A DNA stretch of 64,000 nucleotides. Origin: a virus. The stretch is from positions 1-64,000 of the IMG/VR virus record IMGVR_UViG_3300044700_000345; one strand, given 5' to 3'. Numbering within the stretch: the stretch's first letter is position 1; each line of letters opens with the position of its first letter. The position numbers and the translations under genes are program-made. Of the stretch, positions 1,869 through 60,772 are shown in pieces. Under the pieces are notes generated by a model, which saw nothing but the letters and a program-made list of their open reading frames with translations, did not search any database and had not been told where the DNA came from.

Positions 1869-2543
1869 TTAGGCAAGAATACACCACCCCGTATTTGGTC
1901 CATCTGCCATCCAACGGGGTTCAAAATTCTTGTAGCTGTAGTGCTTCTTAGCCCCATCGGTATTTGGGTAAGTGCCTGCAAGTAGATCAATTTCCCCCCA
2001 GGGATCATTTACCCAATAGCCAGTAGCGTCATAGCCAGTAATACAAAGCCAATGTCCACCACCAGTTGGTTTACTTGGTGTTCCATGGTGCAAAAATCCT
2101 GCTGGTACTGGCTTGCCTGCGTTGATTTGTTTTTGAATTAAAGCACGATTACCGTTTGTTACAAAGATAACAGGCAACCCAAAGTCTTTTAGGGCAGCAA
2201 TCTGAGTAGAGCCTTCGGTTGTATCACCATGATTAAAGACTACTTTGATGTAGTCATCATCGGTCTTGATACTACCGGGTTTAAGGAACTTGAGTAGCAT
2301 TGCACAGCTAGAGCTAAAGCAAGTCCTGTTAGCGTCGCGGTAATTATCCCGCTGGCTCATGTACTGAACAGCTAGGGGATTATTAATTTTTGTTACAGTA
2401 TCAGTTGAGTTTCTAAACCGTTTTAAAAACTCAGTCTGTTCTTCTTTTGACAACACTCCCCAAGCAAAATTCCATGCTTTGTCCTGGTGCTCCAGGGACT
2501 TGTTTTTGTCTGTTGCCCAGGCAGCGTCAAGGAATGTGGTCAT
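1869..2543 (-). CDS. C39-like papain-fold peptidase, probable cell-wall or virion-associated
   Basis: 224 residues. Papain-fold triad candidates are visible in order: Cys in NRTCFSSSCAM near residue 76, His in GGHWLCITGYD near residue 165, and Asn/Asp in GYWVNDPWGE near residue 178. This is the layout of the Peptidase_C39_2 group, which in phages often cleaves peptide bonds in the cell wall or acts as an endolysin or ejection hydrolase. There is no signal peptide or export motif. It lies downstream of the fibre-like gene on the same strand (27 nt gap). The substrate is inferred. Confidence 0.7.
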   Translation of the reverse strand: MTTFLDAAWATDKNKSLEHQDKAWNFAWGVLSKEEQTEFLKRFRNSTDTVTKINNPLAVQYMSQRDNYRDANRTCFSSSCAMLLKFLKPGSIKTDDDYIKVVFNHGDTTEGSTQIAALKDFGLPVIFVTNGNRALIQKQINAGKPVPAGFLHHGTPSKPTGGGHWLCITGYDATGYWVNDPWGEIDLLAGTYPNTDGAKKHYSYKNFEPRWMADGPNTGWCILA

Positions 2544-6327: not shown

Positions 6328-6360
6328 CCACGGTAGACTAAGTACCGATTGGACAGCTTC

Positions 6361-6948
6361 ATGAGCATTCTTTGCGACCGCGAAATCAAAGCACTGGCAT
6401 TACAAAAAGAAATGATTAGTCCTTTTCAGGACAAGCTAATCAGCGAAGTTGATGGCCGTCGTATTTTAAGCTATGGGCTTAGCTCCTACGGATACGATAT
6501 TCGTCTATCCCCCAAGCAGTGTCTAATCTTTGGGCGGATTCAAAAAGGAGATTGTGATCCTAAAGACTTTGATGCTGATATCCTGACAAATGCAGAGTTG
6601 TTGGAAGATGAGAAGGGCCAATATTTTATTTTGCCACCATACGGATACTGCCTTGGTGTCGCTCAAGAACGCATTAAACTTCCAAGGGATGTTACTGTTG
6701 TTGCCGTAGGTAAATCAACATATGCACGATCAGGGATCTTGGTAAATATTACACCAGCCGAAGCTGAGTGGGAAGGCTACCTTACGTTAGAAATCAGTAA
6801 TTGCACTGGTTTGTTCAATCGTATTTACGCTGACGAAGGCATTACACAACTTTTGTTTTACCGTGGATACCCCTGCGAGGTATCCTACCAGGATCGAAAG
6901 GGTAAGTATCAAGATCAAAAGAAAGAAGTAGTTTTCTCCCAGGTGTAA
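6361..6948 (+). CDS. dcd: dCTP deaminase
   Basis: 195 residues from ATG 6361; a longer frame exists only with a TTG at 6349. Family signatures are clear: LSSYGYDIRLS near residue 40, the substrate-site motif GKSTYARSGI near residue 120, then TPAEAEWEGYLTLEISN and EGITQLLFY. The enzyme deaminates dCTP to dUTP, feeding dUMP and then dTMP synthesis; it acts in the cytoplasm, usually as a trimer. Together with ThyX at 54.8 kb it supplies thymidylate. It lies in the plus operon after the methyltransferase-like gene and overlaps the next gene by TAATG. Confidence 0.9.
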   Translation: MSILCDREIKALALQKEMISPFQDKLISEVDGRRILSYGLSSYGYDIRLSPKQCLIFGRIQKGDCDPKDFDADILTNAELLEDEKGQYFILPPYGYCLGVAQERIKLPRDVTVVAVGKSTYARSGILVNITPAEAEWEGYLTLEISNCTGLFNRIYADEGITQLLFYRGYPCEVSYQDRKGKYQDQKKEVVFSQV

Positions 6949-7145
6949 TGGCTGCCGCACAAAGACTTGAAGTTGTAGAGATCTTAATGAGATCTATAAT
7001 TTACCAAGAGAACGAGGAGCTTTGCAAAAAGTTTTCCCGTTTTCGTGGTGATGACGTGCAATGGGTATTAAATGCACTTCACCCTATGTTTGAAATGCTG
7101 CAAGAGTCTTTGGAGCTTGAAGCCTACGGAAATACTACGTACTAA
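6948..7145 (+). CDS. Small hypothetical protein, 65 aa
   Basis: Unrecognised, acidic and probably all-helical. It starts inside the dcd stop (TAATG) and closes the plus-strand operon. Its stop at 7143-7145 overlaps by 4 nt the stop of the convergent minus-strand gene at 7142. Confidence 0.6.
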   Translation: MAAAQRLEVVEILMRSIIYQENEELCKKFSRFRGDDVQWVLNALHPMFEMLQESLELEAYGNTTY

Positions 7146-7480
7146 CCGTAGCTGCGACCAAAGCTAGCACCTGGTTTATTGGCGTAGTTGGTACTGCCTG
7201 CTCTACCAATGGTGTCACCCATGCTGGGTAATGATGTACCAGCAATACTTGCTTCTGCTCTAGGTGTTTTACCTCGAATAGATGGCTCATCAATACCAGC
7301 TTTTTGCCTGAATTTACCAGCGCTACGTGCAGCTGCCATGTACTTAGCTACTTTATCTTGCTTATCATTTAATACAGATACAGAGTTTCGCTCCCTTGGT
7401 TCTACTCGCCGTAAGTCTGTGTCATACGCCTGTTCTGGCCGTAGATCCGAACTCTCCGCTCCAGATGTGCCTAAACCCAT
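7142..7480 (-). CDS. Small hypothetical protein, likely virion-associated, 112 aa
   Basis: Ser/Gly/Ala/Arg-rich, low-complexity and probably disordered, with a central helical stretch near residues 40-60. The style is like the other small minus-strand proteins of the virion arm (for example at 29.1 kb). An open frame exists on the plus strand here (7188-7541), but composition and adjacency favour minus. Function unknown. Confidence 0.5.
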   Translation of the reverse strand: MGLGTSGAESSDLRPEQAYDTDLRRVEPRERNSVSVLNDKQDKVAKYMAAARSAGKFRQKAGIDEPSIRGKTPRAEASIAGTSLPSMGDTIGRAGSTNYANKPGASFGRSYG

Positions 7481-7507
7481 TTTAACTACCTACTTAAGCA
7501 ACAAATC

Positions 7508-7537
7508 TTGTCGTGATAATATTGTAAGAGACATAAT
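7508..7537 (+). promoter_or_regulatory. Candidate sigma-70-type promoter
   Basis: TTGTCG at 7508-7513 and CATAAT at 7532-7537 are separated by 18 nt and point at the gene starting at 7555. It sits in the divergent gap between 7480 (minus) and 7555 (plus). The -35 has four of six consensus bases and the -10 has five. Confidence 0.4.
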
Positions 7538-7554
7538 TTAGGCCTTATATTACC

Positions 7555-7905
7555 ATGCATGGAGCCGCTGGTTTCCTGGATAGTTTCATCCAAGACGAGA
7601 TTGATTGTCGTTGCCTGACCGAAGAAGACTTTGGTGCACCTTTGAGCAACGAAAAGGCTGACGTCCCCCTCCAAGATATGTATAATAGGGGTCTGGTCCT
7701 TCCCCAACAGGGGCGGGAACGCTTAAACCTTGGTGAGGATAACCACGAATGGAAGGAAATGTCACAGACGCGTCCGGGAATGACCGGGTATATTCCTTCG
7801 ATGGAGGAAGCCCTGGAGCAGTATCCAGCGTCGTCTCCTCGCCCACAGAAACTTGTCCTGGCTCTGGGCTCTCCGTCAATGAAGAGTGGCGGTTTGAGTC
7901 GGTAG
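7555..7905 (+). CDS. Hypothetical protein, 116 aa
   Basis: Unrecognised. The first 95 residues are acidic and look coding; the last 20 are Ser/Gly/Pro-rich. Its 3' part overlaps the next plus-strand frame by 157 nt, which is far more than elsewhere in this genome. Either the overlap is real, or the next gene begins later, or the two frames join through a frameshift. Preceded by a candidate promoter at 7508. Confidence 0.5.
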   Translation: MHGAAGFLDSFIQDEIDCRCLTEEDFGAPLSNEKADVPLQDMYNRGLVLPQQGRERLNLGEDNHEWKEMSQTRPGMTGYIPSMEEALEQYPASSPRPQKLVLALGSPSMKSGGLSR

Positions 7906-8372
7906 GACTTAAGACAGCAACATATTGTTTGCCTGTAGCGCCCAGGGGTGGTGTTAATGAAAAATTAACCAATCCCAAAGATATAGTTGGTGTACGAAAA
8001 GCACCTATGTCCACAGTCCCAGCAAATGTTCTTGCGGAGATTGGTGTGGCAATGCTTGAAGGAAGCGTTAAGTACGGGCGCCATAATTATCGGGTTGCAG
8101 GTGTCAGAGCTTCTGTTTACTATGACGCAGTTATGCGACACTTAATGTCTTGGTGGGAAGGCGAAGATATAGATTCTGATTCAAACATGAACCACATCAC
8201 TAAAGCACTTAGCTGTTTAGTAGTGCTTCGAGATGCACAGATGCAAAAAATGTATACAGACGATAGGCCGCCTAAAGCCAAGGCTTTTTATGAGGAGCTG
8301 CACCAAAAATCTGCAATCATTCTTGATAAGTATTCCGATAGAAATCCAAAACACTACAGTGAATTAGATTAA
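7749..8372 (+). CDS. dATP/dGTP diphosphohydrolase-type protein (DUF5664-like)
   Basis: The conserved part starts near residue 73: LTNPKDIVGVRKAPMSTVP, then GSVKYGRHNYR, GVRASVYYDAVMRHLMSWW, EGEDIDSDSNMNHITKALSC and DDRPPK. This is the order seen in phage proteins annotated as dATP/dGTP diphosphohydrolase (PF18909/DUF5664), linked in some phages to MazG-like nucleotide clean-up and to 2-aminoadenine genomes. The true start is unclear: the first 70 residues overlap the preceding gene in another frame, and TTG 7929 would give a standard-length protein. Its stop overlaps the convergent NblA-like gene by 4 nt. It would remove purine dNTPs in the cytoplasm. Confidence 0.65.
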   Translation: MEGNVTDASGNDRVYSFDGGSPGAVSSVVSSPTETCPGSGLSVNEEWRFESVGLKTATYCLPVAPRGGVNEKLTNPKDIVGVRKAPMSTVPANVLAEIGVAMLEGSVKYGRHNYRVAGVRASVYYDAVMRHLMSWWEGEDIDSDSNMNHITKALSCLVVLRDAQMQKMYTDDRPPKAKAFYEELHQKSAIILDKYSDRNPKHYSELD

Positions 8373-8668
8373 AACGGAACGCAGTTTTCTTCGTCGTCTT
8401 CATCTTCGTCGTCGCTTGCGTACATGCAGGCGGCGGCAAGTTCTTCTAATTCTAAGTTTGTCGGAATCTCAAAGGTTAGATCAATATTTTCACCGGCCAA
8501 GATTTCGCGCACTGCCTGCCATTCCATCAAGCGTTGGTAGTACAGGTTAAGAAGTGCGGAGTGAAGTTGCTCCCAACACATCTCATCAGCTTGAAGCTCT
8601 GCCTTTCGCATGGCAAATTGAAACTCCAACGGAAGCTCAAATTCCCTGTGCTCAGAAGAGTTCTCCAT
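8369..8668 (-). CDS. NblA-like protein (phycobilisome degradation adaptor candidate)
   Basis: 99 residues. Residues about 12-58 follow the NblA pattern: LPLEFQFAMR (NblA: LSLEQQFxxR), a helix, then a turn, WEQLHSALLNLYYQRLMEW (NblA: REQAQxFLxxLYEQMxxRE) and a short helix. NblA is a two-helix protein that links phycobilisomes to the Clp protease; freshwater cyanophages carry copies. Here a 40-residue acidic tail (DDEDEDDEEN) is added, which usual 55-60-residue NblA lacks. It lies downstream of the lysozyme-like gene on the minus strand. Resemblance is by eye; a generic two-helix phage protein is the alternative. Confidence 0.55.
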   Translation of the reverse strand: MENSSEHREFELPLEFQFAMRKAELQADEMCWEQLHSALLNLYYQRLMEWQAVREILAGENIDLTFEIPTNLELEELAAACMYASDDEDEDDEENCVPF

Positions 8669-8702: not shown

Positions 8703-9371
8703 CTAGCTGTTGAAGATGTCGTCAAAGTCCTCCAGGGGATAACGCAGCCATTGGGTTGAGCCTACCTTAAATTCATTTGCAAAAACCGAAAGGATGTGCG
8801 GACTAATTTTGCGCTCCAGGTGTCGAATTGCTATTACTTCATTTTCTGCAGCACTGTATTCTCGAAAGGCAGCCAAAAGAATTTCTGTTGAAGGTGGAAG
8901 AACTGCTTCAACCTCCTTTAGGAAAAGTTGAATTTCATCGTTACGTCGTTCAATAAGGCCACCAATAACACTATGTTCTTCATCAAACACCCAGCGGCCA
9001 AGCTCTTCGGCAGCAGCGTAAAAATTATCTTCCTCCAGGGAATCAATTATGTTGCTGTAAAGAAAAGATTCCCACCCAATGGAATGAATAAAAGAAAGCA
9101 ATGCTTCTTGCATTGATTTTGGCAGTCCCAAATTCAATTTATCAAGAAGATCATCAATAATATTTAGCTCATAAAACAAATATTCAATTGCTTTCTCCTT
9201 GGAGCAACACTGCTCACCCTTAACTGAAGAACCATCAGGATAAAATTGTGTGCCGTAACCAAAGGTGTAAGGCTCTGCTCCAGTAATAGGATCTGCATAT
9301 GCCTTTTCGTTGTATCCGGCATGCTTGCAAATCAAATTCACAGCATTTGAAAAGTCAGACATTGGAGACAA
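8703..9371 (-). CDS. GH24 lysozyme-like protein lacking the catalytic Glu
   Basis: 222 residues. The N-terminal 160 residues match phage lysozymes of glycoside hydrolase family 24: KAYADPITG, YTFGYGTQFYPDG, then a helical bundle with ALLSFIHSIGWESF. In the E-x8-D-x5-T catalytic pattern, Asp27 and a Thr (36) are present, but the Glu position is Ala18 (AGYNEKAY where EGxxxxAY is usual). The last 60 residues are an extra helical domain. It may be a virion lysozyme with altered chemistry or a binding protein. It lies 34 nt upstream of the NblA-like gene in the same orientation. ATG three codons in is an alternative start. Confidence 0.7.
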   Translation of the reverse strand: MSPMSDFSNAVNLICKHAGYNEKAYADPITGAEPYTFGYGTQFYPDGSSVKGEQCCSKEKAIEYLFYELNIIDDLLDKLNLGLPKSMQEALLSFIHSIGWESFLYSNIIDSLEEDNFYAAAEELGRWVFDEEHSVIGGLIERRNDEIQLFLKEVEAVLPPSTEILLAAFREYSAAENEVIAIRHLERKISPHILSVFANEFKVGSTQWLRYPLEDFDDIFNS

Positions 9372-15887: not shown

Positions 15888-16652
15888 ATGCAGACAACTT
15901 TCCTTTGCGGATTTTGCGAGAAGACTTTTTTCCCTAATGACGCCGCCGCTGTGCGCTATCGCCTAAAACAAAAAGGTGTTGTGTACTGTTCAAAAGCTTG
16001 TGCTTTTTCAAAACACGGAGCGTTAAAACAATACCCAGGAGAATATTCTTCTTGGACCTCAATGAAGCAACGTTGCAACAATCCCAAGAACACACACTAC
16101 GCTCGATACGGAGGTCGCGGAATAAAGTGCGACGTAAGCTGGGAAAGGTTTGAAAACTTTCTTTTGGATATGGGAGAAAAACCTGACTCCAAAATGGAAA
16201 TAGAAAGAATTGACAATAATGGCAACTACTGCAAAGAAAACTGTTGTTGGGCAACACGAAAAGAACAGACACGTAACCGAGGGGGGAAACGAGCTACAAG
16301 ACTGTATACTTTTAATGACAAAACTATGTGTATTTCTGATTGGGCTAAAGAGATTGGCTTGACTCCTCAATCACTACAAAAACGATTGAACAAAGGATGG
16401 CCACTTGAGTTAGCACTTAACCCAGAAAAACGAGATGGAAACCCAAGCAAACGAGTTATCTGTAACGATCATCCAACCAAGGGCAAGAAGATACGTAGAG
16501 CAACTTCTAAATACATTACGGTAGACGGGGTTACCAAAACGTATAGTGAGTGGGAGTTGGAGAAAGGCCTAAGTAAAGGCCTAATATCCAAGCGTCTATC
16601 GCAAGGATGTACTCCCTATGAAGCCGTTATGAATATTGTTAAGAAACAATAG
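15888..16652 (+). CDS. HNH homing endonuclease with zinc fingers
   Basis: 254 residues. The N-terminus has a CGFCEKTF...YCSKAC zinc pair. The core reads YSSWTSMKQRCNNPKNTHYA, YGGRGIKCDVSW, then ERIDNNGNYCKENCCWATRK and EQTRNRGG, the well-known phage HNH/AP2-type endonuclease layout. The C-terminus contains two repeats of a short HTH-like unit (ISDWAKEIGLTPQSLQKRL; YSEWELEKGLSKGLISKRL) that probably bind DNA. It is inserted in plus orientation between minus-strand virion genes, with 57 nt and 5 nt to its neighbours, as expected of a mobile gene. A GC-rich hairpin lies at 15863-15878 just upstream. Confidence 0.85.
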   Translation: MQTTFLCGFCEKTFFPNDAAAVRYRLKQKGVVYCSKACAFSKHGALKQYPGEYSSWTSMKQRCNNPKNTHYARYGGRGIKCDVSWERFENFLLDMGEKPDSKMEIERIDNNGNYCKENCCWATRKEQTRNRGGKRATRLYTFNDKTMCISDWAKEIGLTPQSLQKRLNKGWPLELALNPEKRDGNPSKRVICNDHPTKGKKIRRATSKYITVDGVTKTYSEWELEKGLSKGLISKRLSQGCTPYEAVMNIVKKQ

Positions 16653-59962: not shown

Positions 59963-60772
59963 ATGAATTTTGTTACACTCTGCGCTCAAACTGCTGAAGC
60001 GCCACGCGAAGTTTACATCAGTGCTACCTCCACAGCAACTCGTTGCTTAGTGTTGTTGCCACCTGTTAGTAACAAAGCACCTACTGCAATTGAACTTAAT
60101 GTCTACGGCAAGAATGCTGAACGCTTTTCTCGTGTTACTAAAGGATCTCAGATCTACATCCATGGTGCAAAACTGCGGTTCGATCTGGAGACTAAAACTT
60201 ACTCTCTCCATGGAGGAATCATTGCTCAAGTTAATGATCAGTTCCCTATCCTCAACACGGTAATCCTTAGTGGACGCTGTGTTAAAGACATTGATCAGCA
60301 AGATGCACGTGCCTTCAAGACAACTACTGATGGTACTATGATTTGCAACCAGACATTAGCTGTTAACACTGGACGTAATCAGTCTGACCTGTTTAACTTC
60401 TATGCAATTAACAGTGCAGAAGACAAGGTTAAACAAGCGGAACTTCTTGTTAACTTCACACGTAAAGGTGTTGGCCTTACTATTCAAGGCCGTATTGTTA
60501 CTGACGCTTGGGTAGATAAAGATACAAAAGAACGGCGTAGTATTACCAAAATTCAATTGGCTTCTATGACGTTGGCACCTAAGGCACAGGCCGGTGCACA
60601 GGAAATTAAACCACAAACAACGGTAGCTGCATCGGATAATGTGGCTCCATTGTGGGGTGGACGCACAGCCGATGAAGGAAGTGACCCTTGGAATGTGACA
60701 TCTGGTGGTGGTCTGCCAGAATTACCTGGTCAATACGGCACTGCACCGGAGCTAAGCAATGAACCCTTCTGA
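59963..60772 (+). CDS. Single-stranded DNA-binding protein candidate, two OB-like domains
   Basis: 269 residues. Two similar beta domains are visible: residues 1-85 (SATSTATRCLVLLPPVSN, AIELNVYGKNAERFSRVTKG) and 90-200 (TVILSGRCVKDIDQ, RKGVGLTIQGRIVTDAWVDK), each like an SSB-type OB fold (...xxxGxxxxVxGxxxxxxW...). A disordered Gly/Pro-rich linker ends in ELSNEPF, close to the acidic-PF tip that SSBs use to bind partners. It lies after the polymerase and carries leader element copy 7. Replaces host SSB in phage replication; inferred. Confidence 0.75.
   Translation: MNFVTLCAQTAEAPREVYISATSTATRCLVLLPPVSNKAPTAIELNVYGKNAERFSRVTKGSQIYIHGAKLRFDLETKTYSLHGGIIAQVNDQFPILNTVILSGRCVKDIDQQDARAFKTTTDGTMICNQTLAVNTGRNQSDLFNFYAINSAEDKVKQAELLVNFTRKGVGLTIQGRIVTDAWVDKDTKERRSITKIQLASMTLAPKAQAGAQEIKPQTTVAASDNVAPLWGGRTADEGSDPWNVTSGGGLPELPGQYGTAPELSNEPF

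What the first reader, a model, noticed from the sequence alone, without database searches (positions are those of the whole stretch)
8369..8668. NblA-like gene with an acidic tail in the virion/lysis arm
The two-helix NblA pattern (LxLExQFxxR ... EQ...LxxLYxQxxxxE) is visible, yet the protein is almost twice the normal length because of an acidic C-terminal tail. It lies next to the lysozyme-like gene on the late strand, rather than among early host-takeover genes. If real, it would place a phycobilisome-degrading adaptor late in infection and fixes the host as a phycobilisome-bearing cyanobacterium.
Basis: partly seen in the sequence, partly recalled or inferred. Interest (0 to 1): 0.62.

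Follow-up and report, generated by a model that had tools for sequence, protein, structure and literature searches.

The report
Core NblA-like protein of EIV1-type cyanophages
This virus of cyanobacteria, like hundreds of its relatives, carries just after its lysis gene a lengthened relative of the small protein that cyanobacteria use to dismantle their light-harvesting antennae, which suggests that antenna break-down is a built-in late step of infection in this phage lineage.

Summary
The ORF is real and homologous to NblA. Window 8369-8668 (-) encodes 99 aa. Its residues 11-57 match Pfam NblA (E 4e-5; 24.4 bits against a cut-off of 25). A profile of its phage family finds only NblA among PDB chains. 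In cyanobacterial genomes that profile finds only NblA loci (37 of 37 that could be checked). AlphaFold puts the two helices exactly where real NblA has them.

The phage is an S-EIV1-like cyanophage. At least 553 viral contigs encode relatives. The gene directly follows lysozyme on the same strand in every locus tested (110/110 and 80/80), so it is a core gene of the lineage. S-EIV1's own copy is annotated 'hypothetical protein'.

The protein is about 1.5 times, not nearly twice, the normal length. The extra part is more than an acidic tail: a conserved linker, a predicted third helix, then an acidic stretch ending in ...PF. Only the phage SSB shares that PF ending in these genomes.

The N-terminal half, reported to bind ClpC, is conserved. 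C-terminal residues thought to face the phycobilisome (K53, W56) are replaced. A late phycobilisome-degrading ClpC adaptor is the likeliest reading (0.6); function is untested. New variant of a known kind.

The parts
8369..8668 (-). NblA-like ORF, 99 aa, including stop codon
   Evidence: relatives in at least 553 viral contigs
8495..8638 (-). NblA core, residues 11-58 (ELPLEFQFAMR... ...LLNLYYQRLMEWQAVREILA); predicted helices 14-28 and 32-59
   Evidence: Pfam PF04485 residues 11-57; hhalign to cyanobacterial NblA residues 10-58, prob 94.3, E 1e-7; AlphaFold helices
8408..8494 (-). Conserved extension, residues 59-87: ENI..DF(D/E)(I/V)PTD.EL..LA, with a predicted third helix 71-87; not seen in cyanobacterial NblA
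   Evidence: alignment of 81 unique sequences; helix; profile matches in 386 cyanobacterial genomes stop at about position 60 of 98
8372..8416 (-). Acidic tail SDDEDEDDEENCVPF, residues 85-99, ending in a constrained Pro-Phe
   Evidence: 60 of 81 unique sequences end in PF and 20 have [D/N]PF followed by 2-4 residues; dN/dS of the last 4 residues 0.046 against 0.135 for the acidic run
8703..9371 (-). Phage lysozyme immediately upstream, 34 bp away on the same strand
   Evidence: PF00959, E 1.4e-15; adjacent in 110/110 loci and 80/80 loci
7749..8372 (+). Convergent dATP/dGTP diphosphohydrolase-type gene, tail-to-tail with the NblA-like gene (4 bp overlap); end of the nucleotide-metabolism block
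   Evidence: PF18909, E 2.1e-23
59963..60772 (+). Phage single-strand DNA-binding protein, C-terminus ..ELSNEPF; the only other ORF here that ends exactly in PF
   Evidence: PF00436; scan of ORF ends

Best explanation
It is a phage-encoded, C-terminally extended NblA and a core gene of the EIV1-type cyanophage lineage. The likely mechanism: made with the virion and lysis genes, it dimerises through the NblA helix hairpin. Its conserved N-terminal segment engages the host ClpC(P) protease and its second helix engages phycobiliproteins. This would drive phycobilisome disassembly and degradation late in infection, freeing amino acids and limiting excess light capture before lysozyme opens the cell. 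The third helix and the acidic ...PF tail would be an added docking or stabilising element. Shown here: homology, predicted hairpin, conservation, selection, position. Inferred: late timing, dimer, ClpC and phycobilisome contacts, tail function.
For: Pfam NblA match, 25/26 family members, one over the cut-off. Profile against PDB: 1ojh NblA is the only match at E<=0.001 (E 5e-4). hhalign to 23 cyanobacterial NblAs: prob 94.3, E 1e-7. Reciprocal test: the phage profile run over 386 cyanobacterial genomes in six frames hits 45 genomes; all 37 places in genomes with listed PF04485 matches are the same NblA loci. AlphaFold helices 14-28 and 32-59 equal those of an Anabaena NblA control (9-23, 27-55) shifted by 5, the alignment offset. 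The N-terminal LxLExQFxxR segment is nearly invariant; that region is reported to bind ClpC (PMC4103541). Lysozyme is always directly upstream. Other phage NblAs have been reported to cause phycobilin loss when expressed in cyanobacteria (PMC9602691).
Against: K53 and W56, invariant in 23 cyanobacterial NblAs, align with A58 (A/D/E/T...) and N61 in the phage family, and Y48 with V/I53, so phycobilisome binding may be altered. The window protein is 0.6 bit under the Pfam cut-off, S-EIV1's copy is well under it (16.3 bits), and NCBIfam finds nothing. The AlphaFold model is of moderate confidence (pLDDT 68, pTM 0.38). Foldseek finds no NblA, although the real-NblA control also fails, so that test is uninformative. 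No expression data for this lineage.
Confidence: 0.6

Rival explanations
1. Anti-adaptor. An NblA-derived protein that keeps the ClpC-binding and dimer parts but has lost phycobilisome binding. It would form dead heterodimers with host NblA or occupy ClpC, protecting the antenna and photosynthesis during infection.
For: The N-terminal motif is conserved while K53, W56 and Y48 are replaced. Many cyanophages carry genes that sustain photosynthesis (established knowledge).
Against: Phage NblAs tested so far are reported to degrade, not protect (PMC9602691). The divergent PaV-LD NblA also departs from the host consensus at several of these positions yet freshwater phage NblAs of that kind are described there as active.
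Confidence: 0.13
2. Retargeted ClpC adaptor with an SSB-type bait tail. The NblA core brings ClpC, and the acidic ...PF C-terminus imitates the SSB C-terminal tip to capture host DNA-repair or replication proteins (SSB-interacting proteins) for degradation, or to tie the protein to the phage replication complex.
For: In the window genome and four relatives including S-EIV1, the phage SSB and the NblA-like protein are the genes with a negatively charged ...PF end (in the marine record the NblA-like one has DPF followed by TPA), apart from a few incidental ORFs. Host SSBs also end so (..EDLPF..DEVPF..DEIPF). The last 4 residues are nearly as constrained as the core. The 9-residue acidic tip of E. 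coli SSB is what recruits its partners (PMC7145534 abstract).
Against: The marine subclade has DPF followed by 2-4 more residues (20 of 81 unique sequences) while a marine phage SSB still ends ..SEDPF. A buried PF should not work as a canonical SSB tip (from my own knowledge, E. coli partners recognise the free terminal Phe). No binding data.
Confidence: 0.1
3. Unrelated small late protein (for example a lysis accessory or minor virion protein) whose helical hairpin resembles NblA by convergence.
For: Invariable linkage to lysozyme. Several NblA-invariant residues are lost.
Against: Reciprocal whole-genome specificity for NblA loci, hhalign and exact helix registration make convergence unlikely.
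Confidence: 0.07

Closest known systems
Cyanobacterial NblA (Pfam PF04485; PDB 1OJH, Anabaena)
   Same: Two-helix core with the same boundaries, LxLEQQFxxR-type N-terminal segment, M/S(T) turn, LxxLYxQ in helix 2
   Different: About 35 residues longer with a third predicted helix and an acidic PF tail; K53, W56, Y48, F18, V22 and M41 equivalents replaced
Ma-LMM01 / PaV-LD phage NblA
   Same: Phage-encoded NblA homologues
   Different: Both score well over the Pfam cut-off (52 and 45 bits), lack the extension, and sit among nucleotide-metabolism genes (nrdA/nrdB, thymidine kinase) rather than after a lysozyme gene
S-SCSM1 NblA (QFG06501) and relatives in marine T4-like and podovirus cyanophages
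   Same: Divergent marine phage NblA; in S-SCSM1 also downstream of virion genes
   Different: 54 aa, no extension, too divergent for the Pfam model
S-EIV1 AHV82245.1, 'hypothetical protein'
   Same: Direct orthologue: 57% identity over residues 1-81, next to lysozyme AHV82244
   Different: Longer acidic tail; annotated without function
Bacterial SSB C-terminal tip (acidic stretch ending IPF)
   Same: Acidic run with terminal Pro-Phe; the phage's own SSB and host SSBs end likewise
   Different: Attached to an NblA core; in the marine subclade the PF is followed by more residues

Membership tests
NblA (PF04485) | Sequence match to the family profile | tested here: met
   E 4.1e-5, 24.4 bits against cut-off 25; 25/26 members match, a relative exceeds the cut-off. 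Strictly by the curated cut-off this one protein falls just short.
NblA (PF04485) | Reciprocal specificity: family profile retrieves NblA genes and nothing else | tested here: met
   37/37 comparable places in cyanobacterial genomes are NblA loci; 1ojh is the only PDB sequence at E<=0.001
NblA (PF04485) | Helix-loop-helix with about 15 and 28 residue helices | tested here: met
   H14-28, H32-59 against control H9-23, H27-55
NblA (PF04485) | Fold retrieval against solved NblA | tested here: inconclusive
   No Foldseek match, but the real-NblA control also retrieves none
NblA (PF04485) | N-terminal LxLEQQFxxR segment, the side reported to bind ClpC | tested here: met
   L12, L14, E15, Q17, F18, R21 conserved in 79 or more of 81 sequences; role of the N-terminal motif from PMC4103541
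NblA (PF04485) | C-terminal phycobilisome-side residues (L51, K53, W56) | tested here: not met
   L51 is I/L, but K53 is mostly A/D/E/T and W56 is N in the phage family. The divergent PaV-LD NblA has R and K near there and no W56, so this is not decisive for family membership; it does lower the claim that the protein binds phycobilisomes in the same way.
NblA (PF04485) | Causes phycobilisome degradation; binds ClpC and phycobiliprotein; dimer | not testable with these tools
   Needs experiment
SSB C-terminal tip mimic | Acidic stretch with Pro-Phe at the free C-terminus | tested here: inconclusive
   Met in the window protein and 60/81 sequences; not met in the marine subclade

The most novel reading that the evidence does not exclude
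The EIV1-lineage protein is a bifunctional ClpC adaptor: an NblA hairpin fused to an SSB-like acidic ...PF tip, so that phage infection redirects Clp proteolysis to the host's SSB-binding repair and replication proteins (or couples antenna proteolysis to the replication complex) rather than, or as well as, to phycobilisomes.
Probability: 0.1. Interest if true: 0.8.

Novelty: new variant of a known kind. Interest (0 to 1): 0.5.

Why it matters
In EIV1-type cyanophages an extended NblA is fixed next to the lysozyme gene, in every locus tested and across freshwater and marine relatives. In the other cyanophages examined here the gene sits elsewhere (Ma-LMM01, PaV-LD) or is too divergent for the Pfam model. 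If active, antenna dismantling is a hard-wired late step of infection for a widespread lineage. A metagenome survey ranked the genus-level group holding S-EIV1 among the five most abundant marine cyanophage groups, at 3.3% (PMC5332604). That survey lists only hli and ptoX as photosynthetic genes for it, so the NblA went unlisted there. The conserved third helix and the SSB-like tail are testable additions to the adaptor's architecture.

Tried and rejected
Chance or convergence: rejected by reciprocal genome searches and hhalign. Foldseek against PDB and BFVD gave nothing; the control with a real NblA also failed against PDB, so the negative was set aside. Co-variation of NblA-like and SSB tails between freshwater and marine clades: only partial; the marine SSB keeps a terminal DPF while the NblA-like tail adds residues. 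A solved-structure relative for the extension: none. NCBIfam and PHROGs: no match. Adenylosuccinate synthetase (PurZ-type) beside the dATP/dGTP diphosphohydrolase gene: none found in five EIV1-type records. Promoter/terminator scan near the gene: promoter-like sites no more than in shuffles. Papers: none held was found to link S-EIV1 to NblA. The S-EIV1 genome paper and Nadel 2025 are not held and Nadel 2019 is known only through citations (not looked up), so prior notice of this variant there is not excluded.

Full report
What is there. The ORF at 8369-8668 on the minus strand is 99 aa long. The window is part of an 80,982-base virus record. Its nearest isolate is Synechococcus phage S-EIV1, which has an orthologue (57% identity over residues 1-81) annotated as a hypothetical protein directly after its lysozyme gene, and matching DNA elsewhere in the virion region.

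Is it NblA? By Pfam the protein scores 24.4 bits, E 4.1e-5, over residues 11-57, against a curated cut-off of 25 bits. Of 26 diverse relatives (the window protein included), 25 match NblA at E<=0.01; one tested scores 26.6 bits, S-EIV1's copy only 16.3, which may explain its annotation. A profile built from the phage family finds NblA 1ojh as the only PDB sequence at E<=0.001 (E 5e-4). Aligned to 23 cyanobacterial NblAs, hhalign gives probability 94.3 and E 1e-7 over 49 columns. As a reciprocal test, the phage profile was run over 386 whole cyanobacterial genomes in six frames: 45 genomes gave matches at E<=0.01. Every match in a genome that also appears in the Pfam NblA listing (37 places, compared by coordinates) falls on the NblA locus itself; the remaining matches lie in genomes outside that listing and were not checked. 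All stop near profile position 60, so the extension has no counterpart there.

Structure. AlphaFold with 25 sequences gives helices 14-28, 32-59 and 71-87, with low confidence for the last 12 residues (mean pLDDT 68). An Anabaena-type NblA run as a control gives 9-23 and 27-55. With the alignment offset of 5 these coincide. Foldseek against PDB returns no NblA for either model, so that negative carries no weight.

Conservation. At least 553 viral contigs encode relatives; 81 unique full sequences were compared. The core is under strong purifying selection (dN/dS 0.027), the extension 0.085, the acidic run 0.135, and the last four residues 0.046 (Nei-Gojobori on pairs 80-98.5% identical; synonymous differences are near saturation, so the ratios are rough). 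The N-terminal LPLExQFxMR segment is nearly invariant; the N-terminal motif of NblA is reported to bind ClpC and a C-terminal motif phycobiliproteins (PMC4103541). On the C-terminal side, K53 and W56, invariant in the cyanobacterial set, are replaced (mostly A/D/E, and N). That Leu-51 and Lys-53 are the key phycobilisome-binding residues is from memory of Bienert 2006, not read here.

Position. In 110 of 110 loci with a lysozyme match, lysozyme is immediately upstream on the same strand, 36-119 nt from the end of the lysozyme match to the start codon (this set was chosen by the NblA-like gene). In the converse test, 80 of 80 lysozyme loci with room downstream carry the NblA-like gene (the 80 closest lysozymes, 56-99% identical). 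The two samples share some contigs, and both are biased to nearer relatives. In the window, lysozyme ends 34 bp before the gene, and the gene meets the opposing nucleotide-metabolism block tail-to-tail. Late co-expression is the natural inference but is not measured.

The tail. 60 of 81 unique sequences end exactly in PF; 20 more have [D/N]PF followed by two to four residues. Among ORFs of the window genome only the phage SSB and this protein end in PF. In G401, G412, G413 and S-EIV1 the pair recurs, with only a few incidental ORFs besides; in the marine record G389 the SSB ends SEDPF and the NblA-like protein EDPFTPA. Gene sets were approximated by non-overlapping ORFs. Host-type SSBs also end in an acidic PF tip. 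This makes an SSB-tip-like docking function worth testing, but the marine endings argue against simple mimicry.

Relation to what is known. Phage NblAs are established: Ma-LMM01, MaMV-DC, PaV-LD, S-TIM5, cyanopodoviruses and S-SCSM1 (PMC9602691). Ma-LMM01 and PaV-LD NblA lie among nucleotide-metabolism genes; S-SCSM1's lies after virion genes, so a place in the virion region is not unique. What is new here, as far as the held library shows, is the EIV1-lineage member: core gene, lysozyme-linked, with a third helix and an acidic PF tail. The two most relevant papers (Nadel 2019, Nadel 2025) could not be read.

Verdict. Homology to NblA about 0.97 (my estimate). Phycobilisome-degrading adaptor acting late 0.6, anti-adaptor 0.13, SSB-like bait tail as main function 0.1, unrelated late protein 0.07 (which counts repurposed as well as convergent cases); the remainder is other roles.

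Noticed in passing
window 59963-60772 (+): Phage SSB with the Pfam OB-fold match at residues 97-203 and a C-terminus ..ELSNEPF like bacterial SSB tips; EIV1-type SSBs compared all end in PF.
   Followed up: partly
window 6349-8372 (+): dCTP deaminase-like gene (PF22769) and a dATP/dGTP diphosphohydrolase-type gene (PF18909) in one block; no adenylosuccinate synthetase homologue was found in five EIV1-type records, so no sign of a PurZ-type base-modification set.
   Followed up: partly
window 15888-16652 (+): A possible homing-endonuclease-like ORF (read by eye, not searched) lies on the opposite strand between virion genes; S-EIV1 has an annotated HNH nuclease elsewhere in the same arm.
   Followed up: no
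L293-L308: The 12 cyanobacterial genomes checked carry two or three SSB-family genes each: the best Pfam match is short and has no acidic tip; of the four further copies read to the end, three finish in an acidic PF tip.
   Followed up: no
window 1869-2543 (-): Peptidase_C39-like protein downstream of the tail-fibre-like gene, a possible second lysis or processing enzyme.
   Followed up: no
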